Shown piece by piece: positions 1,110 through 14,719 of a stretch of DNA of 38,826 nucleotides. The stretch's first letter is position 1, and each line of letters begins with the position of its first letter. The notes beneath the pieces are model-generated. The model was not told where the DNA came from and ran no database searches. It was given only the letters and a program-made list of their open reading frames with translations. The DNA is from an uncultured bacterium. GTDB taxonomy: Bacteria > Bacillota > Clostridia > Lachnospirales > Lachnospiraceae. A program made the translations under genes and the position numbers. The stretch is from the NCBI GenBank assembly GCA_947063875.1, contig CAMSTY010000034.1, forward strand, positions 1 through 38,826, given 5' to 3'.

Positions 1110-1126
1110 AAATGCACCTCCAAGTC

Positions 1127-1155
1127 GAATTGGGCAGACAATGTCTACCCAATTC
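1127..1155 (-). promoter_or_regulatory. 13-bp palindrome in the leader of the AlbA_2 gene
   Basis: Arms GAATTGGGCAGAC and GTCTACCCAATTC are separated by AAT, with one C/A mismatch that becomes a G-U pair in the RNA. The palindrome ends 7 nt before the GGAGGT site. It could be an operator for autoregulation or an RNA hairpin. A TATGAT box on the minus strand lies a few bases further upstream. Confidence 0.55.
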
Positions 1156-1542: not shown

Positions 1543-1576
1543 CTATATAGCAGATTTCCTTTTTGATTTTAACTCA
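1472..1576. repeat. Four copies of TGAGTTA/TAACTCA at the integrase 3' end
   Basis: TGAGTTA occurs at 1473-1479 and 1485-1491. Its complement TAACTCA occurs at 1505-1511 and, inside the integrase coding end, at 1570-1576. The first and third copies extend to an 8-bp inverted repeat (TTGAGTTA 1472-1479, TAACTCAA 1505-1512). This could be a terminator-like fold, or integrase arm-binding sites at the element end. Confidence 0.4.
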
Positions 1577-2760
1577 CATATTTCAGACATTTCCTTTTTA
1601 GCATCCTCATACTTCACATGGGTATATGTATTCAGAGTTACTCCTATATCGCTATGCCCCATGATGTATTGCAACGTCTTGGGGTTCATTCCAGACTTTG
1701 CCATGTTGCTACAGAACGTGTGGCGGCAGACATGAGGGGTAACTTTTGGCATTTGAACCCGATAAATTTTATTGTACTTTTCCCCGATATGCTGGAAATA
1801 TTTCTCCCAATGCAAGGCGACCATCGGCATACCGTTCTTGTCAAGGTATAAAAAACCAGTTTTCCCACCAATGATCGGTTCGACCTTTGGTTTCTGCCGA
1901 TTTTGAATAATGGATTTGAAGCAATCATATACTTCATCTGCCATCGGAATTTCCCTTATGCCGCATGAGGTTTTCGTGTCCTCAATCACATACTGCATAT
2001 CCCTTGTGCGCTGTAATTGGTGGTCTATGATTATTTTTCGATTTTTCATATCCAAATCAGGAATGGTCAAGCCGGCAAATTCCGAAATCCTCATTCCGGT
2101 CTTGAAAAGAATAAAAATACCTTCATAGTATTTGCAGAAATGCTTGTCATTCTTCACAAACTCCAAAAACTGCCGCTCCTGCTTTCTTGTAATTGCCTCT
2201 CTTGTCACGCTGTCATTGACTACAACCGTAGCAAGCTGGAACTCAAACGGATTTTTCACAAGCAAATCATCATCAACTGCCATTTGAAACGCCGGACGAA
2301 CAACTCCGCGGATAGAATGTATGGAACTGTACCCCCTGCCGTCTTTCTGCAATTTAATTAGCCACGCTTTGGCATCTGACAGTTCAACCTTGTCAATACG
2401 TTTTTCTCCAAAGTCTTCCTTTTTAATGATGTTGATAACAAAATTGTAATTCGCCTGCGTATTATGCCGCACTCCTGTTTTTTGTGATATGTACTTTTCG
2501 ACAAGCTGCAACACCGTCACATTTCCGCCGCATGGCACTATTCCGCTGTTCAAATCCGCAAATATCTGCTTTTCCTTTTCTCTAAGGCTTAAATCCGCCC
2601 GCTTTCCACTTGGCATCCGGTCTGATGGCAACAATTTCCAACTGTAAATGGATTTTCGCTTTCCGAATATATCTGTGTATTGGTAAGTGTACCTCCCGTC
2701 TGCCCTCTGTGTTTCTCCGTCGTTTAATACACGGCCTTTAGTGTCTTTTCTCCGTATCAT
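1543..2760 (-). CDS. int: Tn916-type tyrosine recombinase / integrase
   Basis: 405 residues from ATG 2760-2758, preceded by AAAGGAGC; the frame is open 11 codons further upstream, but that ATG has no good ribosome site. The N-terminal arm-binding domain carries KGRVLNDGETQRADGRYTYQY, close to Tn916 Int as I recall it. Then comes a SAM-like core-binding domain (about 80-165) and the catalytic domain. Catalytic residues are visible: R224 in TGMRISE, K263, H343 and R346 in TPHVCRHTFC, H369 in MGHSD and Y379 in LNTYTH, so the enzyme looks intact. It would cut and rejoin element and target DNA. An excisionase-like frame lies 102 bp upstream, the usual xis-int order. No conjugation genes follow, so the element seems to be reduced to this end. 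Confidence 0.93.
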   Translation of the reverse strand: MIRRKDTKGRVLNDGETQRADGRYTYQYTDIFGKRKSIYSWKLLPSDRMPSGKRADLSLREKEKQIFADLNSGIVPCGGNVTVLQLVEKYISQKTGVRHNTQANYNFVINIIKKEDFGEKRIDKVELSDAKAWLIKLQKDGRGYSSIHSIRGVVRPAFQMAVDDDLLVKNPFEFQLATVVVNDSVTREAITRKQERQFLEFVKNDKHFCKYYEGIFILFKTGMRISEFAGLTIPDLDMKNRKIIIDHQLQRTRDMQYVIEDTKTSCGIREIPMADEVYDCFKSIIQNRQKPKVEPIIGGKTGFLYLDKNGMPMVALHWEKYFQHIGEKYNKIYRVQMPKVTPHVCRHTFCSNMAKSGMNPKTLQYIMGHSDIGVTLNTYTHVKYEDAKKEMSEICELKSKRKSAI

Positions 2761-2784
2761 AATAGCTCCTTTCTTATGAAAAGA

Positions 2785-2820
2785 GCGTTGCAAGCAGTAA
2801 AATCATACCACAAGCAACGC
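2785..2820 (-). promoter_or_regulatory. Inverted repeat between the excisionase-like frame and int
   Basis: A perfect 7-bp inverted repeat, GCGTTGC (2785-2791) and GCAACGC (2814-2820), with a 22-nt loop, lies between the xis-like frame and the int ribosome binding site. It may separate expression of the two genes. It has no T-run, so it is a weak terminator candidate. Confidence 0.3.
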
Positions 2821-2862
2821 CAAATTTCAATGATATGAAAAGATATGACAAGTTATGCAAAT

Positions 2863-3114
2863 CTATATTGCGTCAACGCTTTCCAAATATCTCTCAAATA
2901 ACCTTCGTTTAATCAGCGTCTTTGTACCATTTTTGAGGATAAAATCATAATTCCCCTCTGCCAGTCTGTTACGCAATATCCTTTCGTTGATGCCACTATA
3001 TGCCGCCGCCTCTTCAATCGTCAGATTTAGCTTGTCCTTTATCTCAACCTTCGGAGCTCCTTTCGTTCTTCCGTACCTCTTTGTATTTGTGATAAAAAAT
3101 TGGTTGCAAACTTT
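2863..3114 (-). pseudogene. xis: Excisionase (Xis-like) frame without a usable start codon
   Basis: The minus-strand frame ends at TAG 2863-2865. It encodes a typical small Tn916-family excisionase core: LNLTIEEAAAYSGINE, then RNRLAEG, FILKNGTKTLIKRR and LERYLESVDAI-like ending LFERYLESVDAI, a MerR/Xis-type winged helix of about 65 residues. The frame is open back to TAA 3115-3117. Between that stop and the conserved core I find no ATG, GTG or TTG; the only TTG lies inside the helix-turn-helix. Either a rare start (ATA, ATC or CTG) is used or the 5' end has been damaged by a frameshift. Its position just upstream of int supports the identity. Xis would direct Int toward excision. Confidence 0.65.
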
Positions 3115-3279
3115 TTACACTTTACAAACATTATCTCAAAAAGAAAAATAATTGGAAGTTGACGAGTTATTTACCATGTACAAATAAACTGTCTGAAATG
3201 CCTGACAGGCTATTGTTGATTGTCACTCCACCTAAAAGACTTAAATGTAAATGAATATCAGATGATCCATCCCCCCCTG

Positions 3280-3489
3280 TCAATGCTCCCCCTTATCTCT
3301 CTCCCATTCATTAAGGGCAGACTGCCCTTTAGGAGTGATGCCTTCATATTCATAACCAAATGTACCGGTGTAATATCCTCTTCCAGCAGCGTCAAACGCT
3401 TCCTCGCTTCTCAACTCTTCCTCTATATATACCCTCATTTCGAGGCTTACTACCCCCCGATAATACTGTTGCATTGTATAATCATTCAT
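3280..3489 (-). CDS. Small hypothetical protein in the mobile remnant
   Basis: 69 residues from ATG 3489-3487 (an in-frame ATG also occurs 12 codons upstream). It has a helical N-terminal half rich in E/R (LEMRVYIEEELRSEEAFDAA) and a C-terminal stretch EGITPKGQSALNEWERD, which looks like the wing and last helix of a winged-helix protein. The upstream site is A/G-rich but weak. It lies between the xis-like frame and the decayed integrase and slightly overlaps the tail of the latter if the earlier start is used. I do not recognise the family. Confidence 0.4.
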   Translation of the reverse strand: MNDYTMQQYYRGVVSLEMRVYIEEELRSEEAFDAAGRGYYTGTFGYEYEGITPKGQSALNEWERDKGEH

Positions 3490-3499
3490 TTTTTCTTTT

Positions 3500-4013
3500 T
3501 TATTTAATTTTATATATATATCCATCTACCATAGACTCAACTTTCAGTGTTTCTCGATTAGTAATGATCCTCCGAAAGCACGCTGCCACTTCTTCTGTTA
3601 TAGAAACATAGCGGGCACCGCTTTCCGTTTTCGGCTCCTGAATTACATATTCCATTTGTGATGTGCGCTATAATTGATGGTCTATCTTGATACGCATTTC
3701 CCCAAACTCAATATCAGGTATTATCAACCCGCAAAACTCTGAAATACGAAGTCCCGTATGGAAAAGGGTATAGATTGCGTCATAGTATCTGTTAAAATAA
3801 TTGTTTTCCCTGATAAACTTGAGCAAATCCCTTTCCTGTTTCCGGGTAATCGCTTCTCTGGTAACAGAATCATTGACAATCACTGATGCCAGTTCAAATC
3901 CAAATGGATTTTTGCGAATCAGGTCATCATCTGCCAGCTATCTGAAACGCCTGTCTGAGAACGCCACGGATAGAGTGAATGGAACTGTATCCTCTGCCAT
4001 CCATCTGTTGAAA
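3500..4013 (-). pseudogene. Decayed second copy of a Tn916-type integrase (middle part only)
   Basis: Read on the minus strand this matches the middle of the intact integrase nearby: DGRGYSSIHSIRGVLRQAFQ, then RKNPFGFELASVIVNDSV, REAITRKQERDLLKF, TGLRISEFCGL and IKIDHQL. It is clearly dead. One frameshift lies near 3935, and TAG at 3668-3670 replaces the glutamine codon after IDHQL. Beyond the stop the match continues (EYVIQEPKTESGARYVSI, RRIITNRETLKVES) and then is lost at about 3536, so the catalytic H-R-H-Y part is absent. The N-terminal third is also missing, as the match stops at about 4013. It is similar to but clearly diverged from the intact copy, so it is a relic of a different, earlier element at this locus rather than a recent duplication. 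Confidence 0.88.
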
Positions 4014-4016
4014 CTA

Positions 4017-4092
4017 CGCCAGACAGGGGAAGATCGACAGCGAAGTCCGGCAACGGGCGCGGGAAAACCTTGGAACTAATCCTTGTCTGGCG
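4017..4092. repeat. 12-bp inverted repeat (large hairpin) at the edge of the integrase relic
   Basis: CGCCAGACAGGG (4017-4028) and CCTTGTCTGGCG (4081-4092) are complementary except for one G-U/C-T position, with a 52-nt loop. The left arm starts within four bases of where integrase similarity ends, so this could be the end of an insertion that cut the relic, or a structured RNA. I do not recognise an IS end or a known RNA family. Confidence 0.45.
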
Positions 4093-4478
4093 GTTGGGTT
4101 ATATTATACTTTTTCTGTTGCTTTGGTTGTTAAAGGGAAAAAAACGCAGTTACGGGATTTTCCCCGGCAACGGGATAGCAACGAAGCGTGCAACGAGCTG
4201 TCATCTGCCGGATTTTTTCAGAAGGGAAGTTCCATCTGCTCCAGCACTGGCTGGAATCCCTCCGATTTGGGAGAAAAGAAAATGCTATTTATAGATAAGA
4301 GAAGGCTTTTGAACCTTGGTTATAATATGATATACAGTATCGTGACAAGACTCTTTTTTGCGGGAAAGGAGCAAAACAATGTACAAATTTCTTGCCATTC
4401 ATGATTTTTTCTTTCATACTTATAAAAATCATCCAAATACTACAGGGGCAGAACTCATATGAAACAGCTGCCCATTTT
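4093..4478. other. Region without a convincing gene, probably mobile-element debris
   Basis: No frame here has both a good start and a recognisable product. Short hairpins occur, for example TCCAGC/GCTGGA around 4240-4255. The plus strand has one frame open from about 4012 to 4404 that lacks a credible start. A 27-codon ORF with a good ribosome site is listed separately. Confidence 0.35.
4379..4462 (+). CDS. Possible 27-residue peptide
   Basis: ATG 4379-4381 follows GGAAAGGAGC at a proper spacing, and the frame runs 27 codons (MYKFLAIHDFFFHTYKNHP and so on) to TGA. The ribosome site is the main support. It may be the surviving 5' end of a deleted gene. I recognise no family. Confidence 0.22.
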   Translation: MYKFLAIHDFFFHTYKNHPNTTGAELI

Positions 4479-4721
4479 TTAAGGACAGCCATAAGAAACA
4501 TCGTTTTTTTCGAATTTACCTTTCAACATCCCTGCAAACCCGTCCACATAATAGCCAAAATTATCTTTCTTCCAAAACGCACACCCATTGCGCCTGGTAG
4601 GGGAATCTCCCCGGAAAAGCGGAATCCGGCTGATGGACGAGCCAGATCTCTCAGCCTGCTCTGCCACTTCTGCCGACAGAAATCCCTGCCCGCTGTAGCT
4701 GCGCAGATAACCAATTATCAA
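4479..4721 (-). pseudogene. Probable gene fragment downstream of the DUF805 gene
   Basis: A minus-strand frame of about 80-95 residues with protein-like composition: QAALIIGYLRSYSGQGF, RIPLFRGDSPTRRNG and CAFWKKDNFGYYVDGFAGML. The only possible start is TTG 4721-4719 without a clear ribosome site; the frame stays open upstream to a TGA that overlaps the end of the DUF805 gene. It looks like the C-terminal part of a once longer gene that lost its 5' end. I do not recognise the family, and it could also be a small downstream gene translated by coupling. Confidence 0.35.
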
Positions 4722-4762
4722 AGCCGCCTGATCCTGGTCGGAAAGCCGGGATGCCTCAAGAA

Positions 4763-5332
4763 CTAATCAGTATTAAATGGTGTTGGCTGCCCATAAACAT
4801 TTTCCATCGGATCAGATTGCTGCAAAATATATTTTATATTCAAAATGGCCAAGCCAACTCCTGCCAGAAGCAAACAGGCACTAAGGACCGCCAAACCGAG
4901 AAGGCCTGACATAGCAACATCCGTACCCGCTGTAACCATATAACCTCCTGCAAATATAAATCCTATTGCCAAGAAGCCGCCAATGAAAAGTCCAAATACA
5001 ATGAAAATCAAACTCACCCCATTAAAAAGGATTACTTTCCACCCCGCCTTTCCTGAATCATGATATCTTCGCATCGTCGCAAACATGACAGGAAAAAAGA
5101 TCACAGCATTCCACATGGTAATTGCATATGCCATAATTTTTGATATAGGTTCATCATAGGAATAGTTTGAAAAGAAGGCCAAAAAGAGCATTATTTTTCT
5201 AAGGAAAAGCAAACCCGCTTCGACTGCCAAAATCCCTGCCCATGTCCATATGTATCCTTCTTTGGAAAGCCTGCCGCGCCAATTAAAAAAATTCCCAAAC
5301 AAATCCTTCATTGCATAAATGATACTTTTCAT
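4763..5332 (-). CDS. DUF805 family membrane protein
   Basis: 189 residues; start ATG 5332-5330 with AGGAGAAG about 9 nt upstream. DUF805 marks are visible: an aromatic N-terminal segment with FNWRGRLSKEGYIWTW, the loop MRRYHDSGKAGWKVI after the second or third membrane segment, and a C-terminal PMENVYGQPTPF tail. Four to five hydrophobic segments are spread between residues 28 and 168, so it is an inner-membrane protein. The family has no settled function; members are often found near phage or stress genes. It has its own promoter and no obvious operon partner, apart from the gene fragment just downstream. Confidence 0.85.
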   Translation of the reverse strand: MKSIIYAMKDLFGNFFNWRGRLSKEGYIWTWAGILAVEAGLLFLRKIMLFLAFFSNYSYDEPISKIMAYAITMWNAVIFFPVMFATMRRYHDSGKAGWKVILFNGVSLIFIVFGLFIGGFLAIGFIFAGGYMVTAGTDVAMSGLLGLAVLSACLLLAGVGLAILNIKYILQQSDPMENVYGQPTPFNTD

Positions 5333-5377
5333 GTATACATTCTTCTCCTATAACCCTCAAAACACTCTGTCTTATTT

Positions 5378-5406
5378 ATTGTAGCATAAACCAGTATCGT
5401 TGTCCT
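5378..5406 (-). promoter_or_regulatory. Promoter of the DUF805 gene
   Basis: On the minus strand, AGGACA (-35, four of six matches) and TACAAT (-10) are 17 bp apart, ending about 45 bp before the start codon. Confidence 0.45.
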
Positions 5407-5654
5407 CAAAAACAAATAAAAAGCAGGTAAAATTGTAAATTTATCGTTGTCTACCCACTCGTTGAAATATACATTCTACGTCCAATTTTATGCGGCGGAA
5501 GCACAATTCCGTTAATGCTTTTACCATACGAAACGGGAAAAATCGGTATGTGCATGCGGCACATAAGGAAAAGCTTGTTTCCTGAATCTTGGGCGAACAG
5601 TATTCCTGCACTCAGCATAGCAATGCCTGGAACATTCCTCCCTATACTATGCGA
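5407..5654. other. Gap between the M20 gene and the DUF805 promoter
   Basis: No recognised gene. A minus-strand frame of 55 codons (ATG 5618 to TAG 5451, with SINGIVLPPHKIGRRMYIS) is open but has a poorly placed ribosome site and no known relative; I leave it uncalled. No clear terminator for the upstream operon was found. Confidence 0.3.
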
Positions 5655-6824
5655 TTATTCCATGGAAAGGATTGCCAGAGTATAAATCTTTGCACGTGTA
5701 AACATAGATTCCACCAATGCATATTCTCTGCGGTTATGGTTAAATTCACCGACTACGCCACAGGAACATAATGCCGGAATATCTGCCCTCGCAATGGCTC
5801 CTGTATCAGAAGCGCCGCCCAGGATAATCTTTCCGAACTTTTCAAATCCATTCTCCTCCGCTACCTGGTTCACAAAATTATATAATTTCATAATTTTTTC
5901 ATTTGGCTCAAAAGCATGCAGTTTTGCAAACTCCAGGCGATACTCTGTTTCTGTTCCCGGCACATAAGCATGTTTCACAATCTGGTCAAACGTATCCCGG
6001 ACGCGTTTTCCCTCCTGCTCGTTCATAATTCTGACATCCACTGCAAATTCGCAAAGATCCGGAATCGAAGTCGTATTCTTTCCACAATGCAAAACGCTTG
6101 GAGTAACCGTTGTCCCCTTGTCAAGATCCGTCACTTTCATCATCTCATTAATCTTCAAAACGGCTTCACTCAGAGCATTGTGGCCTTTCGTAAATTCATT
6201 ACCCGCATGACCGCCTTTCCCATGAACCGTAACAAAAAATGTATACTGGGTTTTACGGCCTACGCACAAACTATTAGTGATATGGCCGGTCTCCATATTA
6301 AACGCACATAACGCCCCTTTGCACTCCTCTGTGAACAGCAAATCCACATCTGTCCCCACATGATCCCCCTCTTCTTCTCCTGCCAAAACAAACTTGATCG
6401 GATGTGCATTGTAACCCAGAGATTCCAGTGCCTTGCTTACGTATAAAGCCATGACAATTCCGCCCTTCATATCCAGAACGCCGGGACCATAGGCCTTTCC
6501 GTCCTCAATGTAAAATGGGTTTTCTTTCCCAAAACTTCCCTTCGGATGAACAGTATCCATATGCCCGCCAAATACAATAGGCTTTCCCGGACGATCCTCC
6601 CCCAGAATCCCCAGCAGGACACTGCAGCGATCCGGACGGGACTCGACCGTCCATGTACGGAATCCCGCTGCCTCCAATTCTCCACGGAACCATGCTTGTG
6701 CATTTTCTACGTTCTCTTTTTCATCATAACGTCCTTCCAGATTGACGAAATGTTCCCATTTTTCAATGATTTCCTCACGATGCGCATCAATATACCGGCA
6801 AACCTGCTCACGATATTCTTTCAT
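5655..6824 (-). CDS. ygeY: M20 family metallohydrolase, YgeY-like
   Basis: 389 residues, close to the length of E. coli YgeY. It has the M20/DapE-ArgE fold: GGHMDTV with H88 and D90, GPGVLDMKGG with bridging D118, AGEEEGD with the general base at E151 region, NMETG with E178, and H363 in GEFNHNRREYA. The lid domain lies between about 185 and 300 (VHGKGGHAGNEF). All five zinc ligands are seen, so a two-zinc amidohydrolase acting on an N-acyl amino acid or dipeptide-like amide is expected. It is the last gene of the ridA-dpaL-nhaC operon, 3 bp after the nhaC stop, with AAGGAG inside the nhaC end. The DpaL-YgeY pairing is the same as in the E. coli yge cluster. The substrate is unknown; a derivative that yields 2,3-diaminopropionate is my inference. 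Confidence 0.88.
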   Translation of the reverse strand: MKEYREQVCRYIDAHREEIIEKWEHFVNLEGRYDEKENVENAQAWFRGELEAAGFRTWTVESRPDRCSVLLGILGEDRPGKPIVFGGHMDTVHPKGSFGKENPFYIEDGKAYGPGVLDMKGGIVMALYVSKALESLGYNAHPIKFVLAGEEEGDHVGTDVDLLFTEECKGALCAFNMETGHITNSLCVGRKTQYTFFVTVHGKGGHAGNEFTKGHNALSEAVLKINEMMKVTDLDKGTTVTPSVLHCGKNTTSIPDLCEFAVDVRIMNEQEGKRVRDTFDQIVKHAYVPGTETEYRLEFAKLHAFEPNEKIMKLYNFVNQVAEENGFEKFGKIILGGASDTGAIARADIPALCSCGVVGEFNHNRREYALVESMFTRAKIYTLAILSME

Positions 6825-6827
6825 CTC

Positions 6828-8240
6828 TTACTCCTTTTCTGCAGCTACTTCGCCGCGTGCAATTTTAGAAAATTTCTTATCAATATTGGTTATAGTGACT
6901 ATCATTAAAATAACAAATGTGATATATGGCGCAAACATATATGGAATCATATCTATAGGTTCCACATCCAGAAATCCGCAGACCGTTAGAGGATTGGAAT
7001 TCCATGGAACCAGAAGGCCGCTAAGGAGACATCCTACCGTCATGGCACGCGTCAAATCCCACTTATTCAAACTATTCTTTTCATAAACAGGTTTCAACAA
7101 ACTTCCTGTAAAAATAAAGGAAAAGTTTCCGGATGCTGACGTAACATTTGATATAAAGCCAAGAAGCACTGTACAAATAGTTCCCGACAGCCTGGAGTTC
7201 ATCCGTGTTGTCAACGGTTCCACCACCTTGTCAATAATTCCTGCCGTACTGAGAAGTCCAAATAATCCGAAAGCAAAGATGAACATAAATGCCGTTCCGG
7301 ACATACTTGTAATACCTCCGCGGCTAAAAATCTTTGTCAAAAACGCATCTTCCGAATTAAGAACAAATCCACTCCACATATAGGAAACCGTATCTTGAAA
7401 TGAATGCTCCTGATACAGCCAGGAGATCACAAAACCGGAAACGGCTCCCGTCAAGATAGAGGGAATAGACGGAATTTTCAATAGCAACATAAGCAAAACT
7501 GCTACAAGGGGAATCAGCGTGATAATCCCCAGATTATAACTGCTCTCAATACCAGCGATTACCTGCTGGATCGAACTGATATCTGCAGTTCCCGCATCAT
7601 ATCTGCTCCCCCAGATAAAGTATATCACCGCACAAATCAAAATAGATGGGATTGTAATCGATGCCTGATACTTAATTGCCTTAAATAAATCTACCCCGAC
7701 AGATCCTGCTGCTACATTGGTACTGTCGGAAAGCGGACTGAACGCATCTCCGAAAAAGGCGCCTGTAATAATCGGCGCTGCCACGACGGTAGGACTTATT
7801 CCCATACTTAATCCGACTCCCATTAATGCTATTCCCGCAGTGCCGCAGGTTCCAAAAGATGTCCCCGTAAACAAGGAAAATATGAGACAGATAAAGAATG
7901 CCATTGCCATAAAAAATTTAGGATTAATGGTAGAAAGACATAACTTGGTAACCATTGCTACAGTACCACTTGCGTTCCACAGGCCAACCATGCTTCCCAC
8001 ACATAATACAATCGTCATAGGCGTCAGGCATTTAGCCATAAACTGAAACATTCCTGTCTGTAATTCCTTATATGTGTATCCCAATTTCATACAAAACGGA
8101 ATGGTAATCAGCCATGATATTAAAAATAATGGCTGAGTCCTCGCCCCCAAAAATACTGCCGGAATCATAATGATTCCAAAAGAAACCAGTACAGTCAATG
8201 CTGCATATCCAAAACTTAGTGTTTGTTTTTCTTTAGACAT
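6828..8240 (-). CDS. NhaC family Na+/H+ antiporter-type transporter
   Basis: 470 residues from ATG 8240-8238, chosen over an upstream in-frame ATG because AAAGGAGAGG lies just before it and the earlier start would overlap dpaL. About 11-12 membrane segments are evident. NhaC-type motifs include TGTSFGTCGTAGIALMGVG and GAFFGDAFSPLSDSTNVAAG in the middle and GNFSFIFTG followed by CLLSGLLVPWNSNPLTVCG near the end. The family includes Na+/H+ antiporters and MleN-type malate-lactate exchangers. Lying between dpaL and the M20 gene, it more likely carries the pathway substrate or an end product in exchange for Na+/H+ than serves general pH control (inference). Confidence 0.9.
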   Translation of the reverse strand: MSKEKQTLSFGYAALTVLVSFGIIMIPAVFLGARTQPLFLISWLITIPFCMKLGYTYKELQTGMFQFMAKCLTPMTIVLCVGSMVGLWNASGTVAMVTKLCLSTINPKFFMAMAFFICLIFSLFTGTSFGTCGTAGIALMGVGLSMGISPTVVAAPIITGAFFGDAFSPLSDSTNVAAGSVGVDLFKAIKYQASITIPSILICAVIYFIWGSRYDAGTADISSIQQVIAGIESSYNLGIITLIPLVAVLLMLLLKIPSIPSILTGAVSGFVISWLYQEHSFQDTVSYMWSGFVLNSEDAFLTKIFSRGGITSMSGTAFMFIFAFGLFGLLSTAGIIDKVVEPLTTRMNSRLSGTICTVLLGFISNVTSASGNFSFIFTGSLLKPVYEKNSLNKWDLTRAMTVGCLLSGLLVPWNSNPLTVCGFLDVEPIDMIPYMFAPYITFVILMIVTITNIDKKFSKIARGEVAAEKE

Positions 8241-8268
8241 ATTATACCTCTCCTTTAGATATCGAATT

Positions 8269-9495
8269 TTAAAACGGCATTGCATCCTTCCCCTCATATA
8301 CCACCTTTTTATAATGGACAGGATCTGTGTCTCCTTCTGTGCTGAAAAGCAGTACCACTGAATTTTCATTGAGGCCTAGCATATCCTTTAATCCCCCATA
8401 CCCTTCCTTCCCTGCAATCACATTCAAAAGCCCTGTTGTTACTGCCCCGCTTTCTCCTGAAATCACCTGGCGATCTCCCGGAGCCGGTGCAGCAAGAAGT
8501 CTCATGCCGTAGGCAGAAACATAATCCGGACATGACAGATACCAGTCCGCAAAATCCCTTAAGATCGGCCATGTCACCGTGCAAGGTTCCCCGCAGTTTA
8601 ATCCAGCCATAATCGTTGGCGCAGTATTTTCTGCCGGATGGGGTTCCCCGTCATCCACCTGCGCCGAACGGTAAATACAGGCAATATTTTCCGGCTCCAC
8701 AATACTGACTATCGGGCGCATTCCTTCATAGCGGTTGGTCAGATATCCCAAGACCCCGCCTGCCATAGCGCCTACGCCTGCCTGAAGGAACACATGAGTC
8801 GGGGTTTCAAATCCGGCTTCCTTAAGCTGCGAAACAGCTTCCTCTGCCATGGTAGTGTAACCTTGAATAATATATTTAGGAATCTCCTCATATCCTTCCC
8901 AACTGGTATCCTGCACTAAAAACCATCCGTTTTTCTCTGCCATTTGAGCCGCATAACGCACCGTGTCATCATAGCCGGTTTCCATAATACGCACCTCTGC
9001 CTGTCCAACCCTGCGAATTGCCTCAGCCCGCAACTCAGACGAACCTGACGGCATGTATACATGCGCCTCGCAACCCAGCTGTCCGGCAGCCCATGCCACT
9101 CCTTTGCCATGATTGCCGTCTGTCGCCGTCACAAAAACCATGCCCTTCAGCTTCTCTTTCCATTCCGGCTTTTGCAAATCCGAAAAGCTGATTGTATTCA
9201 TATCCAGCCCAAGCTTTTTGCATACAATACATATCAGTGCATATAATCCTCCAAGCCCTTTAAATGCATTCAGGCCAAAACGCTGAGACTCATCTTTTAC
9301 AAAAATAGCTTTCACACCCAGACTCTTTGCCATTCCATCCAATCTTACTAATGGGGTTGGCTTATAAATCTCCAACGCTTTGTGGATTCTGTGAGCCCCT
9401 TTCGTTGACTCTTCTGAAAGGAACTCCGGTCCTTTCCCCAAACATTTATGTTCATTTTTAATCCCGTGAACATAGCCAATGAGATACTTCTTCAT
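8269..9495 (-). CDS. dpaL: Diaminopropionate ammonia-lyase (PLP enzyme)
   Basis: 408 residues; ATG 9495-9493 follows AGGAGCGC. A fold-type II PLP enzyme of the YgeX/DpaL family: RFGLNAFKGLGG with the Schiff-base lysine K79, TATDGNHGKGVAWAA for the PLP-phosphate/substrate loop, VQDTSWEGYEEIP, FLQAGVGAMAGGVLGY (the glycine-rich phosphate loop) and LLFSTEGDTDP at the C-terminus. The length and motifs match E. coli YgeX. The family converts 2,3-diaminopropionate to pyruvate and two ammonia through 2-aminoacrylate. It is the second gene of the operon, 40 bp behind ridA. In gut bacteria ygeX/ygeY homologues have been tied to anaerobic purine degradation, but the other genes of that cluster are not in this window. 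Confidence 0.93.
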   Translation of the reverse strand: MKKYLIGYVHGIKNEHKCLGKGPEFLSEESTKGAHRIHKALEIYKPTPLVRLDGMAKSLGVKAIFVKDESQRFGLNAFKGLGGLYALICIVCKKLGLDMNTISFSDLQKPEWKEKLKGMVFVTATDGNHGKGVAWAAGQLGCEAHVYMPSGSSELRAEAIRRVGQAEVRIMETGYDDTVRYAAQMAEKNGWFLVQDTSWEGYEEIPKYIIQGYTTMAEEAVSQLKEAGFETPTHVFLQAGVGAMAGGVLGYLTNRYEGMRPIVSIVEPENIACIYRSAQVDDGEPHPAENTAPTIMAGLNCGEPCTVTWPILRDFADWYLSCPDYVSAYGMRLLAAPAPGDRQVISGESGAVTTGLLNVIAGKEGYGGLKDMLGLNENSVVLLFSTEGDTDPVHYKKVVYEGKDAMPF

Positions 9496-9514
9496 TTTGC
9501 GCGCTCCTAATCAA

Positions 9515-9526
9515 TATGCAATATAT
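9515..9526. promoter_or_regulatory. Operator copy 1 (TATGCAATATAT) between ridA and dpaL
   Basis: An exact copy of the 12-mer found twice more at 9959-9970 and 10044-10055. It lies 20 bp before the dpaL start, in the 40-bp gap after ridA, where a bound regulator could adjust expression inside the operon. Confidence 0.55.
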
Positions 9527-9534
9527 CGGATTGG

Positions 9535-9903
9535 TCATAAAATAGCCGTCGCCTCAATTTCACACAGAACCCCTTTCGGTAAAGTTTTGACTGCCACACA
9601 GCTTCTTGCTGGTTTTGATACAAAATAACGGGCATACACTTCATTAAATGCAGCAAAATCACCCATATCAGCCAGGAAACATGTGGTTTTAAACACTTTT
9701 TCCATATTGCTGCCCGCTGCTTCCAAAATCGCTGCCACATTTTTGCAACTCTGCTCTGCCTGTAAGGCAATTCCTTCTGGTACCTCTCCACTCTGAGGAT
9801 CTACTGGTATCTGCCCGGAAGTATATACCAACTCCCCGATTGCAAATCCCTGCGAATACGGCCCGATTGCGCCTGGCGCCTTAGTTGTTTCTACTTTTGT
9901 CAT
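9535..9903 (-). CDS. ridA: RidA family 2-aminoacrylate/imine deaminase
   Basis: 122 residues, full length for the family; ATG 9903-9901 behind AAAGGAGGAA. RidA marks: APGAIGPYSQG near 10-19, VYTSGQIPVDP at 27-36, the catalytic arginine R100 in KPARSCVAV, and CEIEATAI at 114-121 with E115. Trimeric cytosolic RidA hydrolyses reactive enamine/imine intermediates such as 2-aminoacrylate, which poisons PLP enzymes. The next gene codes for a PLP lyase that passes through exactly this intermediate, so RidA here looks like a dedicated partner. It is the first gene of the operon. Confidence 0.95.
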   Translation of the reverse strand: MTKVETTKAPGAIGPYSQGFAIGELVYTSGQIPVDPQSGEVPEGIALQAEQSCKNVAAILEAAGSNMEKVFKTTCFLADMGDFAAFNEVYARYFVSKPARSCVAVKTLPKGVLCEIEATAIL

Positions 9904-9936
9904 GAAGGCGATTCCTCCTTTTCTTTTGATGTTTTA

Positions 9937-9965
9937 ACTATACCACGCTCCCGATTGATATGCAA
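9937..9965 (-). promoter_or_regulatory. Promoter of the ridA-dpaL-nhaC-ygeY operon
   Basis: On the minus strand, TTGCAT (9965-9960) and TATAGT (9942-9937) are 17 bp apart, about 34 bp before the ridA start. The -35 box lies inside operator copy 2. Confidence 0.7.
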
Positions 9966-9970
9966 TATAT
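9959..9970. promoter_or_regulatory. Operator copy 2 (TATGCAATATAT) over the operon -35 box
   Basis: Exact 12-mer. With its flanks it forms the perfect palindrome CAATATATTG (9963-9972). It covers the -35 box of the ridA operon, a position that suits repression by the divergent GntR regulator. Confidence 0.65.
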
Positions 9971-10003
9971 TGGTTGACATTTTTTAATTTTTTTCAATAA
10001 TAC

Positions 10004-10032
10004 TTGCAATTTACTGATGAAAATTGTAAAAT
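10004..10032 (+). promoter_or_regulatory. Promoter candidate for the GntR gene
   Basis: TTGCAA (10004-10009) and TAAAAT (10027-10032) are 17 bp apart. A second candidate, TTGACA 9974-9979 with AATAAT 9996-10001 (16 bp), lies upstream. Either would transcribe toward the GntR gene through operator copy 3. Confidence 0.5.
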
Positions 10033-10043
10033 ATTTATACCGG

Positions 10044-10055
10044 TATGCAATATAT
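10044..10055. promoter_or_regulatory. Operator copy 3 (TATGCAATATAT) in the GntR leader
   Basis: Exact 12-mer 33 bp before the GntR start and just downstream of its promoter candidates, well placed for autoregulation. Confidence 0.6.
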
Positions 10056-10087
10056 AACATACAAACTGCACAAGAAAGGAGTTCCTT

Positions 10088-10738
10088 ATGCCGATTCCCA
10101 AGAAAACAGAAACCCTCCTTCGCACAACGGCAAAAGAACGAGTTTATAATACACTGCGGCAATGGATTATCGACGGAACCATGCTTCCGGATGAACGATT
10201 GAATGACAAGGAACTTGCCCAATATTTTTCAGTATCGCGCACTCCTGTCCGTGAAGCGCTGCAAATGCTTATGGAGCAGAAACTGGTTACCATCATACCT
10301 TCCAGCGGAACTTATGTCGCCCCCATCGATCAGGAGGATATGGTATATGTTTATCAACTTCTAATACGCCTTCAGACAACTGCCATCGAACTGATTATTA
10401 ACAAGCTGTCCTCCGCAGAACTGGCACAGTTAGCCTCCATCAACGAGGCGTTTCTTCAGCATGCCAATCATGACTCTGCCTCGGACATGACAAAAGCTGA
10501 TTTTGATTTTCATCACTATCTTGCTCAATACAGCGGCAATCCTTACTTAATCACATTCAGCGATAATCTGATTGTAAAAGCCTGCAGAAACGAAAATCGC
10601 TTTTTTAAACAAAGCCGGAACCCACAAATCAGCTATGAACATCACCAGAAAATTATTGAGGCATTACATAACAAAGATATATCCATGGCCCAGAAAATGA
10701 TTCAGATCAACTGGGAAGTTTCTTTTTGCCAGAAATAA
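10088..10738 (+). CDS. GntR family transcriptional regulator, FCD subfamily
   Basis: 216 residues; ATG follows AAAGGAG at good spacing. The N-terminal winged helix (about 12-77) shows RVYNTLRQWIIDG, RLNDKELAQYFSVSRTPVREAL and VTIIPSSGTYVAP. The C-terminal all-helical FCD domain follows (about 85-210), with DFDFHHYLAQYSGNP carrying D and H residues typical of the metal site, and a late histidine pair in SYEHHQKIIEAL. It is divergent from the ridA operon and lies beside three copies of a 12-mer, so it is the likely local repressor, relieved by a pathway metabolite (inference). A strong hairpin terminator follows the stop. Confidence 0.93.
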   Translation: MPIPKKTETLLRTTAKERVYNTLRQWIIDGTMLPDERLNDKELAQYFSVSRTPVREALQMLMEQKLVTIIPSSGTYVAPIDQEDMVYVYQLLIRLQTTAIELIINKLSSAELAQLASINEAFLQHANHDSASDMTKADFDFHHYLAQYSGNPYLITFSDNLIVKACRNENRFFKQSRNPQISYEHHQKIIEALHNKDISMAQKMIQINWEVSFCQK

Positions 10739-10758
10739 TCCTGTTTTCCACACAGGTA

Positions 10759-10795
10759 AAAGGCTCCGATTCTCACCGTGGGAATCGGAGCCTTT
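10759..10795. terminator. Bidirectional terminator between the GntR and AEC genes
   Basis: A perfect 14-bp stem, AAAGGCTCCGATTC (10759-10772) and GAATCGGAGCCTTT (10782-10795), with a 9-nt loop, between two convergent genes. T-runs are short on both sides. Confidence 0.85.
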
Positions 10796-10809
10796 GTAGG
10801 GGATTCTAT

Positions 10810-11751
10810 TCAAAATATTCCTAATTGGCTTAGTGCAAAAATCCATAAAAAGATGGTGACCAGTGAAAACAATGATGTAAACACAACCAACTGCGCCGCT
10901 AAATCTGCATCTGAGTCCATGGCGCTTGCCAGATTAAAGGAGGTTGTGGCACACGGCGCAATAAAAATACACATCAAAGCAATAAATTCCGCGCCGCGGA
11001 AACCAAGGGCTATTGTTATCGTAATCAGAATTGCCGGGACGATCAGCAATCTGGATACGGAACCCACAACAATCGGCTTTATGTTATTCCTGACTGCGCC
11101 AAAATTAAATAATCCTCCCATAACAATCAACGCAACCGGCGTACCGCAACGGCCCAGATCCCGGAAAACATTGGCAATCACATCCGGATAATGGATATGA
11201 AGCAGCTGCGTGGCAAAGCCGGCAATCGCCGCGATTACATAAGGATTCTTAATTACGCCTCCAAAGGTTTTCTTAAAACTCAGCTTGCTGTTTTCACGGA
11301 ACATTTCCAAAAGTATTACGGAAAATACATTTTGAACCGGTACAATTACAGCAATTAACAGAGAAATTCCGCCAATATTACCTTCTCCGCACAAAGCCGT
11401 GCCAATCAATGTTCCGAAAATAACAAAATTGGTATGAAAAATCCCATGGGCCAGGGCTCCTCTCCTCTTCTTCGCCTTCTCTGTAGACATCGCCACCAAT
11501 AAAGAAAACAGCATAATGGCAACCTGGGTAATGATTGCATAAATCAGAAGCTTTGCATTGAATACCTCTTTGATATCAACCTTATAAATATTGTAATAGA
11601 CATTAACCGCTAAAAACGCACGGAAACAAACGGTATTCAATTTATTCAGCATATGTTCATCTGCCATTTTGATCTTCCGCAGATACCATCCCAGAGTTAA
11701 CATGATAAACATTGGCAGCACTGCTGTCAATGCGGTCTGAAAACTACTCAT
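10810..11751 (-). CDS. AEC family transporter (auxin-efflux-carrier type permease)
   Basis: 313 residues; ATG 11751-11749 with GAAAGGGAG upstream. It has about ten membrane segments in the two-half AEC arrangement: FQTALTAVLPMFIMLTLGWYL at the N-terminus, a cytosolic basic loop EKAKKRRGALAHG near 92-104, HTNFVIFGTLIGTALCGEG, and a second half starting NPYVIAAIAGFA. The C-terminal half carries MCIFIAPCATTSFNLASAM, a family hallmark. AEC proteins in bacteria move malate, malonate or other organic acids; the substrate cannot be read here. It is divergent from a LysR gene with a palindromic site between them, so it is probably the LysR target. Confidence 0.88.
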   Translation of the reverse strand: MSSFQTALTAVLPMFIMLTLGWYLRKIKMADEHMLNKLNTVCFRAFLAVNVYYNIYKVDIKEVFNAKLLIYAIITQVAIMLFSLLVAMSTEKAKKRRGALAHGIFHTNFVIFGTLIGTALCGEGNIGGISLLIAVIVPVQNVFSVILLEMFRENSKLSFKKTFGGVIKNPYVIAAIAGFATQLLHIHYPDVIANVFRDLGRCGTPVALIVMGGLFNFGAVRNNIKPIVVGSVSRLLIVPAILITITIALGFRGAEFIALMCIFIAPCATTSFNLASAMDSDADLAAQLVVFTSLFSLVTIFLWIFALSQLGIF

Positions 11752-11957
11752 TACTTTTCTCCCTTTCTTCTATAATTCGTTTTTAACAAAGCCGGATTCT
11801 TCCTTTATAATCAGCTGCATTTGCAATCAAACCCGTAAATACAGCCATTCGCTAATTCATTATGCGTTTCCGATAGAACCAGACAGTTCAAAGATCATAC
11901 TCCTATTTCTATATTCATTATATTTCTAACCTCGCAGCATGTAAAATATCAAAACCT

Positions 11958-11990
11958 TATAATGATATAGGTTTTTTCTATATCATTATA
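11958..11990. promoter_or_regulatory. Perfect 13-bp palindrome, likely LysR binding site
   Basis: TATAATGATATAG (11958-11970) and CTATATCATTATA (11978-11990) around a 7-bp GTTTTTT spacer. It sits in the divergent region between the AEC and LysR genes. The remaining sequence of this 358-bp gap holds their promoters and nothing else I recognise. Confidence 0.65.
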
Positions 11991-12036
11991 TTTATATTAC
12001 GCCGTTGTTCAGGAGGCTTCCTAAACCGTTTTCCGC

Positions 12037-12065
12037 TTGAATATGGCACAAAATTAACTTATAAT
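12037..12065 (+). promoter_or_regulatory. Promoter of the LysR gene
   Basis: TTGAAT (12037-12042) and TATAAT (12060-12065) with a 17-bp spacer, 44 bp before the start codon. It lies 46 bp downstream of the palindrome. Confidence 0.7.
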
Positions 12066-12109
12066 AAATTATTATTGCTTTTTATCCTAATAAGGAAGGG
12101 ACATTTCCA

Positions 12110-12982
12110 TTGAAATTAACACAATTAAAATATTTCCAGGCAATTTGTAAGTACAACAATATTACACATGCCGCCCATGAACTTCATATTTCACAGCCCA
12201 GTTTATCCCATGTCATAAAAGAACTGGAGGAAGAATTCGGAATTTCTTTATTCCAACGCCGAAGCAAGGGACTTAGCCTTACAAAAGAAGGTAAAATTCT
12301 CCTGGAAGAAACCGACAAATTGCTGGAACAAGCAAACCATCTCATTTCCCGCATGAATACCGTAACTCAAAAAAGCCAGCACATAAAATTGGGAATTTCT
12401 CCTATGCTTGCGAGTTTGATTTTTCCTGAGCTCCTTCATTCCTACCATTTAAGTTTCCCTAAGACACAGCTGGAAGTGAGCGAGCATGGAACACTGACGA
12501 ACAAGTCTAAGATTTTAGATGGTTCCCTGGATGTGGCAATCATATCCTGTGATGGTTCCCTGCCCCCGTCCTACCAATATTGCGATCTGCTCGCACTCGA
12601 TATTTGTTTTTATACTTCCGTCAGCAATCCGATTGCCGCACGCTCTTTTGTCACGCTTGAAGACTGCGCTCATGTTCCCTTAGTATTATTAACCGAAGAT
12701 ACGTTTCTTACGGACTATCTCTTTCGATATTATAAAACCCTTCATCTGACCCCTAACGTAGTCGTCCATACAAACCAGATAGCAACCATCCATCAGCTAA
12801 TACATAAAAATACCGCCTCTAGCTTTTTATTTGATCAAACCATTGCCGAAGATCATGATATTGTTAAACTTCCTGTTAAGGGCCAGTCCAGCGTCCAGGT
12901 CAAATTAATCTGGAAAGCGAATCGTCAATTATCTTCCGCAACACAAAATCTGATTCGTTTCGTCCGCAAAAAATATCCATAA
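12110..12982 (+). CDS. LysR family transcriptional regulator
   Basis: 290 residues with a TTG start at 12110-12112, preceded by AAGGAAGGG. The N-terminal winged helix-turn-helix is standard: MKLTQLKYFQAICKYNNIT, AAHELHISQPSLSHVIKELEEEFGISLFQR and LTKEGKILLEE, followed by a linker helix. Residues about 90-290 form the two-lobe substrate-binding domain (IKLGISPMLASLIFPELL). It would bind the palindrome in the upstream gap and control the AEC transporter in response to a small acid (inference). Confidence 0.92.
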   Translation: MKLTQLKYFQAICKYNNITHAAHELHISQPSLSHVIKELEEEFGISLFQRRSKGLSLTKEGKILLEETDKLLEQANHLISRMNTVTQKSQHIKLGISPMLASLIFPELLHSYHLSFPKTQLEVSEHGTLTNKSKILDGSLDVAIISCDGSLPPSYQYCDLLALDICFYTSVSNPIAARSFVTLEDCAHVPLVLLTEDTFLTDYLFRYYKTLHLTPNVVVHTNQIATIHQLIHKNTASSFLFDQTIAEDHDIVKLPVKGQSSVQVKLIWKANRQLSSATQNLIRFVRKKYP

Positions 12983-13048
12983 AGCGCCAAAAAGCCGGAT
13001 TCCTTTTCCCAGCGGTATCCGAACGAGAAAACACCTATGCCCCAAAAA

Positions 13049-13081
13049 GAGAGATGCACTGCTCTTTGCAATCCATCTCTC
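13049..13081. terminator. Weak terminator-like hairpin after the LysR gene
   Basis: GAGAGATG (13049-13056) and CATCTCTC (13074-13081), 8-bp arms and a 17-nt loop without a clear T-run, between convergent genes. Confidence 0.35.
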
Positions 13082-13156
13082 CTGTCATTTAATAACTGGT
13101 TTCCTTTTCCTACCAGATAATCTTTCTTAACCCGATTTTTCAAAAATACGGTTCTG

Positions 13157-13705
13157 CTATCCTTCCATCTGCCTTCCCAGAAACCCGGCCGCTGTCATTA
13201 CCAGCTTCAGTTCCATATCTCCAAATTTCATTTTCACATCCCGGCTCAGCAGCGCCACCGCCCCGATGGCATCTCCCTCGCAGATAATCGGCGTCACCGC
13301 CTCATAGGTGATTCCTTCCATCTCCTCCTCCGTGACAGGGATAAATGCTTTTTCATCCTTAGAGGCAATAATGGTCTCCCGCTCATTGATGGCATTCTCC
13401 AGCTGCTTGCTGATATTTTTCTGCAGCAAATCCTTCTTCGGCCCTCCGGATACAGCTATGATCTGATCCCGGTCCGTGATACAGACCATCAGGCCCGTGG
13501 ATTGGGCCATAGCCTCCGCATACTGTGTGGCAAAGGCGGTCAGTTCCACCATCGGGGAATACTTTTTAAGGATGATCTCACCTTCCCGGTCCGTGAAGAT
13601 TTCCAAGGGCGTACCCTCTCTTAAACGCAGCGTTCTTCGTATTTCTTTCGGTATTACAACACGTCCAAGGTCGTCTATTCTTCTCACAATTCCCGTAGCT
13701 TTCAT
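13157..13705 (-). CDS. spoVT: Stage V sporulation protein T
   Basis: 182 residues from ATG 13705-13703, chosen because it starts the conserved MKATGIVRRIDDLGRVVIP and follows GGAGGA; the open frame extends 29 codons upstream without support. The N-terminal AbrB swapped-hairpin DNA-binding domain covers residues 1-50 (EIRRTLRLREGTPLEIF), and a GAF-like domain covers about 60-180, ending AAGFLGRQMEG. The length and both ends match Bacillus SpoVT. SpoVT is a forespore regulator of late sporulation and germination genes. A sigma-G-like promoter upstream fits this role. Confidence 0.95.
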   Translation of the reverse strand: MKATGIVRRIDDLGRVVIPKEIRRTLRLREGTPLEIFTDREGEIILKKYSPMVELTAFATQYAEAMAQSTGLMVCITDRDQIIAVSGGPKKDLLQKNISKQLENAINERETIIASKDEKAFIPVTEEEMEGITYEAVTPIICEGDAIGAVALLSRDVKMKFGDMELKLVMTAAGFLGRQMEG

Positions 13706-13761
13706 AGAAAAATTCCTCCATTTTGCATTCTGACATTTACCTGTTGTTTTAGCTGTAAATG

Positions 13762-13791
13762 TAGTATCTGTAAAACAGAGGAATTTATACA
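13762..13791 (-). promoter_or_regulatory. Sigma-G/sigma-F-like promoter of spoVT
   Basis: On the minus strand, TGTATA (13791-13786) and GATACTA (13768-13762) are 17 bp apart, close to the Bacillus sigma-G consensus TGAATA / CATACTA. It lies about 57 bp before the start codon. Confidence 0.5.
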
Positions 13792-13822
13792 CTGAAATTT
13801 TTATGTTGAGAATGATTCTGAA

Positions 13823-14719
13823 CTACCGCTTTTTCTCTTTTCCAGCCGCCAGCAAAAAAATCGTAGACAAAATACAGAAAAAACCGGCCAGATCCATTCC
13901 GCCGAAGGCCGCACGCATCCAGATCACGGAAAATACGGTAGCCGAAACAGGCTCCACCGAGGCATAGAGGCTTCCCTTCTTCGGCCCTACGCAGCGGACT
14001 CCCTCCATATAACAGGAAAATGCCACCACCGTACCCAATATTACCACAGCTGCCATCCCTGCCAGCACCTGTCCGTCCATCTGCACCGGAATCTCCCAGG
14101 GATGAAAAATCACGCAAAGCATCACACCGCCCACCAGCATTCCCCATGCCGTTACCACGGAAGAACCATATTCTTCCAGGAGAATACCCGGCTGCACCGT
14201 ATACACCGCCAAAGCCACTGCCGACAAAAGTCCCCAGAACAATGCTTTGGGGGAAAGCGCCATGGCGCCGGGATTCCCGTGAGTCGCCAGAAAAAAAGTC
14301 CCCATCACTGCCAGAAAGATTGCCAGCAGTTCCGTCGGCTGCGGCAGCTGCTTATGCCGAAGGGACAAATACACCAGGATCAGAACCGGCCCGATATATT
14401 GCAGTACGGTTGCCGTTCCCGCATTGGAAGCGCTGATCGCCGTAAAATAGGTATACTGGCACATGCTCATCCCAAAAACGCCAAAAATAAGAATCCCCAG
14501 CCAGTCCCGTTTCCAAATGTCAAAAATTCTCCGCTTTTCTTTCAGCCAGCAGATCGCCAGCAGCAGGCCGCCGGCTGTCAGCAGCCGGACCGGCACCAGC
14601 CAGTCAGAAAGTAATCCTTTGGTCTGCATCAAAAACTGACCGCACGTTCCGGAAAACCCCCACAGCATTCCTCCCGCCAATGTCATCAGCGCTCCTCGAA
14701 CCGCCATTTTTCTATCCAT
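13823..14719 (-). CDS. EamA/DMT family transporter
   Basis: 298 residues if it starts at ATG 14719-14717, which follows GGAGGAAAAG; an upstream ATG at 14740 has only a GAGGT one base before it. It has ten membrane segments in two EamA repeats: GALMTLAGGMLWGFSGTCGQF in the first and LSPKALFWGLLSAVALAVYTV in the second, each ending in a helix such as ASNAGTATVLQYIGPVLILVY and CVGPKKGSLYASVEPVSATVF. A short basic tail follows. Members export amino acids or related metabolites; the substrate is unknown. It reads toward spoVT with about a 117-bp gap and probably has its own transcript. Confidence 0.9.
   Translation of the reverse strand: MDRKMAVRGALMTLAGGMLWGFSGTCGQFLMQTKGLLSDWLVPVRLLTAGGLLLAICWLKEKRRIFDIWKRDWLGILIFGVFGMSMCQYTYFTAISASNAGTATVLQYIGPVLILVYLSLRHKQLPQPTELLAIFLAVMGTFFLATHGNPGAMALSPKALFWGLLSAVALAVYTVQPGILLEEYGSSVVTAWGMLVGGVMLCVIFHPWEIPVQMDGQVLAGMAAVVILGTVVAFSCYMEGVRCVGPKKGSLYASVEPVSATVFSVIWMRAAFGGMDLAGFFCILSTIFLLAAGKEKKR

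What the first reader, a model, noticed from the sequence alone, without database searches (positions are those of the whole stretch)
5655..10738. Self-contained RidA-DpaL-NhaC-M20 catabolic operon with its own GntR switch
The sequence shows four genes in tight series (gaps of 39, 28 and 3 bp) divergent from a GntR/FCD regulator. DpaL-family enzymes pass through 2-aminoacrylate, and RidA clears that compound, so their pairing in one operon is chemically logical. The YgeY-like M20 hydrolase pairs with DpaL as in the E. coli yge cluster, but the carbamoyltransferase, hydantoinase and purine genes of that cluster are missing and an NhaC-type transporter is present instead. My inference is a small import-hydrolyse-deaminate module for an N-substituted 2,3-diaminopropionate (for example an acylated, oxalylated or carbamoylated form), yielding pyruvate and ammonia.
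Basis: partly seen in the sequence, partly recalled or inferred. Interest (0 to 1): 0.75.

Follow-up and report, generated by a model that had tools for sequence, protein, structure and literature searches.

The report
Diaminopropionate-derivative breakdown operon with own switch
A small, horizontally shuffled set of bacterial genes probably imports an unusual amino acid derivative, cuts off its attached group and turns the core into pyruvate and ammonia, under the control of what looks like its own dedicated genetic switch.

Summary
In detail: ridA-dpaL-nhaC-M20 lie in series (gaps 39, 28, 3 bp), divergent from a GntR/FCD gene. DpaL passes its curated cut-off and keeps the known catalytic residues. 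One detail is wrong: the M20 is not YgeY-like (45 bits, cut-off 321.5) but a rare carboxypeptidase-G2-like branch. The genome has no YgeY or SsnA above cut-off. In the genomes searched, six loci have an M20 at least 50% identical; all six carry dpaL and nhaC, one in another genus, while eight more distant M20 loci have neither. The six M20s form one clade (95/93) but their DpaLs come from two (AU p about 1e-55), and module relatedness contradicts species relatedness: parts are exchanged yet re-assembled. New here: a predicted operator, TGCRATATATYGCA, in the spacer of all seven loci with this GntR (strict in six, 12 of 14 letters in the window); six of the seven carry dpaL. Best reading: import, hydrolysis and deamination of an amide-linked 2,3-diaminopropionate derivative to pyruvate and ammonia. 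The attached group is unknown. New variant of a known kind.

The parts
9535..9903 (-). ridA: Rid-family enamine/imine deaminase
   Evidence: TIGR00004 158 bits, cut-off 106; PF01042
8269..9495 (-). dpaL: diaminopropionate ammonia-lyase
   Evidence: TIGR03528 547 bits, cut-off 532; best PDB matches 5ygr and 4d9g, named diaminopropionate ammonia-lyase; K77, D120, D189 (E. coli numbering) invariant in 50 rows
6828..8240 (-). nhaC: NhaC-superfamily transporter, putative importer
   Evidence: PF03553; TIGR00931 315 bits, below cut-off 370; ArcD model 192 bits, below 650
5655..6824 (-). M20 metallohydrolase, carboxypeptidase-G2-like branch
   Evidence: PF01546 and PF07687; best PDB match 1cg2; metal-ligand columns conserved; not YgeY
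10088..10738 (+). GntR/FCD regulator, putative switch of the module
   Evidence: PF00392, PF07729; five genus homologues at 128-149 bits, the next match at 94.5 bits
9961..9974 (+). predicted operator site (12 of 14 letters) in the gntR-ridA spacer
10046..10059 (+). predicted operator site (12 of 14 letters) in the gntR-ridA spacer
9517..9530 (+). predicted operator site (12 of 14 letters) in the ridA-dpaL gap
10810..11751 (-). AEC-family carrier, possible accessory organic-acid transporter, convergent with gntR; membership of the module uncertain
   Evidence: PF03547; a copy 80% identical lies beside the L093 module

Best explanation
A catabolic module for an amide-linked (N-acyl or peptidyl) derivative of 2,3-diaminopropionate. 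NhaC imports the compound; the M20 metallohydrolase cuts the amide bond, freeing 2,3-diaminopropionate and a small acid or amino acid; DpaL (PLP) eliminates ammonia to give 2-aminoacrylate; RidA speeds its hydrolysis to pyruvate and a second ammonia. The GntR/FCD protein sits on TGCRATATATYGCA-type sites between gntR and ridA and in the ridA-dpaL gap, and is released by the substrate or by diaminopropionate. The neighbouring AEC carrier may move the released acid. Shown by sequence: gene order, families, catalytic residues, conserved neighbourhood, co-occurrence of regulator and sites. Inferred: substrate, direction of transport, co-transcription, operator binding, inducer.
For: DpaL above its equivalog cut-off with catalytic residues kept. 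All six loci found with an M20 at least 50% identical carry dpaL and nhaC. The six M20s form one clade (95/93) while their DpaLs belong to two (p-AU 1.2e-55): different DpaLs recruited to the same hydrolase. In seven of seven loci with this GntR the spacer holds the site; six carry dpaL, six an M20 hydrolase (of three M20 branches), six an NhaC or AGCS transporter. DpaL as a 2-aminoacrylate source: PMC9127364 (passages).
Against: No sequence feature names the attached group. The M20 is below the cut-off of all 25 NCBIfam models shown of 42 matched, and eight relatives at 37-45% identity occur without dpaL. The window's DpaL clade also holds loci in which no nhaC or M20 of this kind was seen (Anaerovibrio, Pyramidobacter, L095, L097; L002 and L004 are short contigs). 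NhaC relatives include true Na+/H+ antiporters. RidA is missing from 2 of 6 modules; one locus with the GntR has no dpaL (L153) and one has no hydrolase or transporter nearby (L100).
Confidence: 0.6

Rival explanations
1. The DpaL of this clade works on another beta-substituted alanine (for example D-serine, or a beta-N-substituted alanine cut directly), and the M20 releases that amino acid from a conjugate.
For: The 11-row clade has two residues seen in none of the 39 other rows, at E. coli positions 151 and 290, the latter next to invariant C291, so specificity may have shifted.
Against: Catalytic residues are kept and the equivalog cut-off is passed. Modules with the same M20 and GntR also use DpaLs of another clade that have A, not N, at 290 (L093, L185).
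Confidence: 0.15
2. General dipeptide scavenging with detoxification: the M20 is a broad dipeptidase, DpaL and RidA only remove toxic free diaminopropionate, and NhaC is a pH-homeostasis antiporter that offsets the ammonia made.
For: Relatives of the M20 occur beside other enzymes and membrane proteins without dpaL. The role of NhaC is said to be unknown even where a lysine riboswitch controls it (PMC11477304, passages read).
Against: This hydrolase branch, nhaC and dpaL re-assemble repeatedly, and at loci with the same GntR an AGCS symporter stands in for NhaC, as expected of an importer rather than an antiporter.
Confidence: 0.15
3. A salvage tail of the reductive uric-acid route: the M20 does the YgeY step on 3-ureido-2-aminopropionate (albizziin) taken up from outside.
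For: YgeY plus YgeX turn albizziin into pyruvate in vitro (PMC12507026, passages read). One locus with this GntR and a strict site carries a YgeY-like M20 (L153, 33% to E. coli YgeY).
Against: The window M20 is far from YgeY and has GGASD, like GGGTD of carboxypeptidase G2, where two YgeYs compared have STNG and CTNG. No SsnA or YgeY above cut-off in the genome.
Confidence: 0.1

Closest known systems
yge/uac reductive uric-acid cluster (E. coli ygeW-ygeX-ygeY-hyuA, C. difficile with UacX/UacY)
   Same: DpaL (YgeX) as the last step to pyruvate, preceded by an M20 hydrolase that frees diaminopropionate
   Different: No purine or ring-cleavage enzymes recognised; M20 of another branch; NhaC transporter; GntR instead of the YgeV-type regulator; DpaL only about 50% identical and in another sub-clade
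Carboxypeptidase G2 / glutamate carboxypeptidase-like M20 (1cg2; NCBIfam PRK06133)
   Same: Metal-ligand columns, H229, R288 and the GGxSD/GGxTD motif conserved; best PDB and best NCBIfam match
   Different: R324 of CPG2 is not kept; 165 bits against the family cut-off of 349
NhaC superfamily carriers (NhaC antiporter, ArcD)
   Same: Family domain PF03553
   Different: Below the NhaC and ArcD equivalog cut-offs; substrate unknown
RidA pairing with 2-aminoacrylate-producing PLP enzymes
   Same: RidA next to a 2-aminoacrylate generator
   Different: The Rid gene-neighbourhood survey PMC4433059 has no occurrence of 'diaminopropionate' or 'ygeX' in its main text (term search)

Membership tests
Diaminopropionate ammonia-lyase (TIGR03528) | score above the curated equivalog cut-off | tested here: met
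   547.1 bits, cut-off 532.25
Diaminopropionate ammonia-lyase (TIGR03528) | Schiff-base lysine and catalytic aspartates (K77, D120, D189 in E. coli; roles recalled) | tested here: met
   invariant in all 50 rows
Diaminopropionate ammonia-lyase (TIGR03528) | activity on 2,3-diaminopropionate | not testable with these tools
   needs an assay
YgeY hydrolase (TIGR03526) | score above the curated cut-off | tested here: not met
   45.1 bits, cut-off 321.5; separate branch in the trees
Glutamate carboxypeptidase / CPG2-like M20 (PRK06133) | metal ligands and base H112, D141, E175, E176, E200, H385 (numbers recalled) | tested here: met
   all six columns conserved in the window protein
Glutamate carboxypeptidase / CPG2-like M20 (PRK06133) | score above the curated cut-off | tested here: not met
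   165 bits, cut-off 349; CPG2-like, not a member by this model
NhaC Na+/H+ antiporter (TIGR00931) | score above the curated equivalog cut-off | tested here: not met
   315 bits, cut-off 370
RidA (TIGR00004) | score above the curated cut-off | tested here: met
   158.4 bits, cut-off 106.25
GntR/FCD regulator | PF00392 and PF07729 above gathering score | tested here: met
   67.8 and 66.7 bits, cut-offs 27 and 24.3
Reductive uric-acid degradation cluster | SsnA and YgeY in the genome | tested here: not met
   none over cut-off in the 92%-complete genome

The most novel reading that the evidence does not exclude
The module degrades a diaminopropionate that carries a small dicarboxylic acyl group, such as the dietary neurotoxin beta-N-oxalyl-diaminopropionate or a malonyl analogue: the M20 releases the dicarboxylate, DpaL and RidA make pyruvate, and the organic-acid carriers found beside several modules (AEC in the window and L093, a MatC-type dicarboxylate carrier in L094, LctP-type permeases in L096 and L132) move the acid. 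This would supply genes for a rumen activity for which a 2020 review lists pathway and metabolites as not identified (PMC7590051, passages and one section read).
Probability: 0.1. Interest if true: 0.85.

Novelty: new variant of a known kind. Interest (0 to 1): 0.55.

Why it matters
The activity of diaminopropionate ammonia-lyase was known but its physiological role was not, until the recent uric-acid work (PMC12990295, first of two parts read). These results show the enzyme also at the core of another kind of module, linked to a regulator of its own, in which hydrolases and transporters are exchanged. That suggests sources of diaminopropionate other than purine breakdown, and offers a specific regulator and site with which the inducing compound can be found.

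Tried and rejected
YgeY identity of the M20: rejected by profile score, motif and trees. Uric-acid pathway in this genome: not supported. Rfam RNA in the window: none at gathering threshold. tRNA: none. The fourth exact TATGCAATATAT in the own genome (C4:15789) lies inside a long ORF and was taken as chance; the strict palindrome in G021:C43 also lies inside an ORF. The Anaerovibrio and Pyramidobacter DpaLs (65-70% identical) were examined for the module; none was seen in the stretches held. Structure prediction and fold search were not run, since they would not settle the substrate. The Spearman values use non-independent pairs and are not used as a test. Rows dropped: L109 (same contig as L001); L008 (long branch) and L103 (partial), where the N-terminal extension of the L185 ORF was also trimmed; CPG2 and the four M20D rows from the tree. 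An earlier count of chance sites used 38 of 45 other long dpaL loci; one search repeated it on all 45.
Full report
Observation. Profile scans assign RidA, DpaL, NhaC superfamily, M20 and GntR/FCD. DpaL passes its equivalog cut-off (547 bits against 532), and its best solved relatives, 5ygr and 4d9g, are named diaminopropionate ammonia-lyase. In an alignment of 50 DpaL rows, K77, D120 and D189 (E. coli numbering; their roles are recalled) are invariant. Co-transcription is inferred from spacing. Promoter-like matches are no more than in shuffles (13 against a mean of 12.2); terminator-like ones are 11 against 5.1, sd 2.5; neither is evidence of function. No call names the organism; the genomes compared bear handles only.

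What is wrong in the finding. The M20 is not YgeY-like: 45 bits to the YgeY model whose cut-off is 321.5; its best model is glutamate carboxypeptidase-like, 165 bits, itself below the 349 cut-off. Its best solved relative is carboxypeptidase G2. Aligned to carboxypeptidase G2, the metal-ligand columns, H229 and R288 are conserved, and it has GGASD where carboxypeptidase G2 has GGGTD and two YgeYs have STNG and CTNG; R324 is not kept (residue numbers recalled). In a tree of 38 M20 rows it lies with carboxypeptidase G2 and away from both YgeY branches, though the program warns that long branches meet there; without carboxypeptidase G2 and the M20D rows the separation from the YgeYs stands at 100/100 (34 rows), again with a long-branch warning.

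Not a uric-acid cluster. The E. coli yge region was fetched as a yardstick. The own genome (92% complete, 3,485,877 bases in 111 contigs) has one DpaL over cut-off and no YgeY or SsnA over cut-off. Of 49 DpaL loci compared, 13 have purine-cluster genes within 6 kb and 5 have this M20 with nhaC; some loci are cut by contig ends.

Conserved neighbourhood. The M20 was searched in 24 genomes of the genus (6 with a match at E 1e-50 or better), 391 of the class (4 at 1e-60) and 397 of the family (2 at 1e-80), the own genome counted each time. Six loci have an M20 at 50% identity or more: the window; G020 (L093, 84%); G017 (L094, 61%); a second G017 locus on two contigs (L098 and L132, 52%; that they belong together is inferred); G023 (L096, 52%); and G1061, of another genus of the family (L185, 50%). 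All six carry dpaL and nhaC in the stretch held. Eight loci at 37-45% identity (two each in G000 and G018, one each in G021, G741, G558, G668) show neither dpaL nor nhaC at E 1e-6 in 16-19 kb. RidA is in four of the six (window, L093, L096, L132), this GntR in three (window, L093, L185). The L094 copy of the M20 has one in-frame TGA. The module is rare: 4 of 24 genus genomes.

Exchange of parts. Mfd identity to the window genome is 88% for G023, 76% for G017 and 75% for G020, but M20 identity runs the other way: 52, 61 and 84%. L093 and L094 share NhaC at 94% but M20 at 62% (one open piece of L094) and DpaL at 48%. The six module M20s form one clade (95/93; 91 in the earlier quick tree without L185). 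The window DpaL lies in an 11-row clade (100/99) with L094, L096 and L098, while those of L093 and L185 lie in another (99/97); forcing the six module DpaLs into one clade is rejected (p-AU 1.2e-55; the group was defined by context, but after a first tree had been seen). The 11-row clade has two private residues, A151 and N290, in 11 of 11 rows against 0 of 39; L093 and L185 have L and A there. Parts that are exchanged independently and yet found together again are the best evidence here for a joint function. Against exclusive partnership: the same DpaL clade also holds loci without this M20 or nhaC (L001-L004, L006, L095, L097).

The switch. TATGCAATATAT occurs three times in the window, all in this operon (chance expectation 0.30 at one mismatch), and four times in the own genome. 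Like sites lie in the spacers beside the GntR homologues of L093, L100, L102 and L103, giving the palindrome TGCRATATATYGCA. In 24 genus genomes this occurs at eight places, seven at loci with this GntR and one inside an unrelated ORF; the reversed control pattern has none. The GntR has five close homologues in the genus (128-149 bits); the next match has 94.5 bits. Seven loci with this GntR were examined: all seven spacers hold a site of at least 12 of 14 letters, 13 sites in 2,047 bp, against at most 2 spacers and 2 sites in 2,000 first-order Markov shuffles, and 2 sites in the other 122,991 bp of the same loci, both next to module genes. In 45 other long dpaL loci (694,087 bp) there are 9 such sites, none of them strict. 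Limits: the motif was drawn from window, L093, L100, L102 and L103; L153 was found through the motif; only L185, found through its M20, confirms it independently, with two strict sites. The window's own three sites match only 12 of 14 letters and none is strict. Some gene starts, hence spacer lengths, are uncertain (L103, L185). Six of the seven loci carry dpaL; L153 has a YgeY-like M20 and an AGCS symporter instead. The hydrolase is the carboxypeptidase-G2-like M20 in window, L093 and L185, an M20D amidohydrolase in L102 and L103, YgeY-like in L153, and none seen in L100; the transporter is NhaC in three and AGCS in three, none seen in L100.

Mechanism. Import, hydrolysis and deamination of an amide-linked diaminopropionate derivative is the simplest account. 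YgeY plus YgeX do the analogous two steps on albizziin in vitro (PMC12507026, passages read; overview PMC12990295, first of two parts read). Diaminopropionate ammonia-lyase is named among the 2-aminoacrylate generators of Salmonella (PMC9127364, passages read). Genes beside some modules, IlvD (L093, L094), MatC-type carrier (L094), AEC (window, L093), LctP-type permease (L096; L132, 67% identical) and a carboxyltransferase like OadA (L132), hint at organic-acid products, but this is weak.

Literature. In nine searches of the held library no listed title or abstract start describes a ridA-dpaL-nhaC-M20 operon or a GntR regulator of dpaL. Several listings were capped (one search shows 15 of 240 papers), and most subscription papers are not held, so absence from print is not shown. 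The Rid neighbourhood survey PMC4433059 was searched for terms only. In the passages read of PMC7590051 the oxalyl-diaminopropionate degraders of the rumen have no genes assigned.

Noticed in passing
L077, L078, L079, L080, L081, L085: Six loci with a YgeV-type regulator, dpaL, YgeY-like M20, sodium:solute symporter and UacY-like Amidohydro_3 (RidA in three) but no purine-cluster genes within 6 kb: looks like a stand-alone ureido-diaminopropionate module.
   Followed up: partly
L153:5211-8838 (G004): Same GntR and a strict site beside a YgeY-like M20 and an AGCS symporter, without dpaL.
   Followed up: partly
L001, L002, L003, L006 (Anaerovibrio), L004 (Pyramidobacter): dpaL genes 65-70% identical to the window's, in Anaerovibrio beside DUF1848 and bPH-domain genes, with no nhaC or M20 of this kind in the stretch held.
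   Followed up: partly
window 1543-2793 and 1-14000: Tn916-type integrase at the left, and G+C of 0.38-0.45 over the left 14 kb (operon included) against 0.48-0.54 to the right: the operon may lie in acquired DNA.
   Followed up: no
L126:5818-12399 (own genome, contig C24): Two tandem M20 relatives (41 and 39% identical) near a distant RidA homologue and a membrane-protein-like ORF without Pfam match; G018 has the same arrangement (L128).
   Followed up: no
L094:11860-13041: The M20 frame is interrupted by a single in-frame TGA; pseudogene, sequencing error or other reading not decided.
   Followed up: no
L093:3651-5324 and L094:6045-7799: Dihydroxy-acid dehydratase (IlvD) genes beside two of the modules, the L093 one with a strict operator palindrome upstream (L093:5378).
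   Followed up: partly
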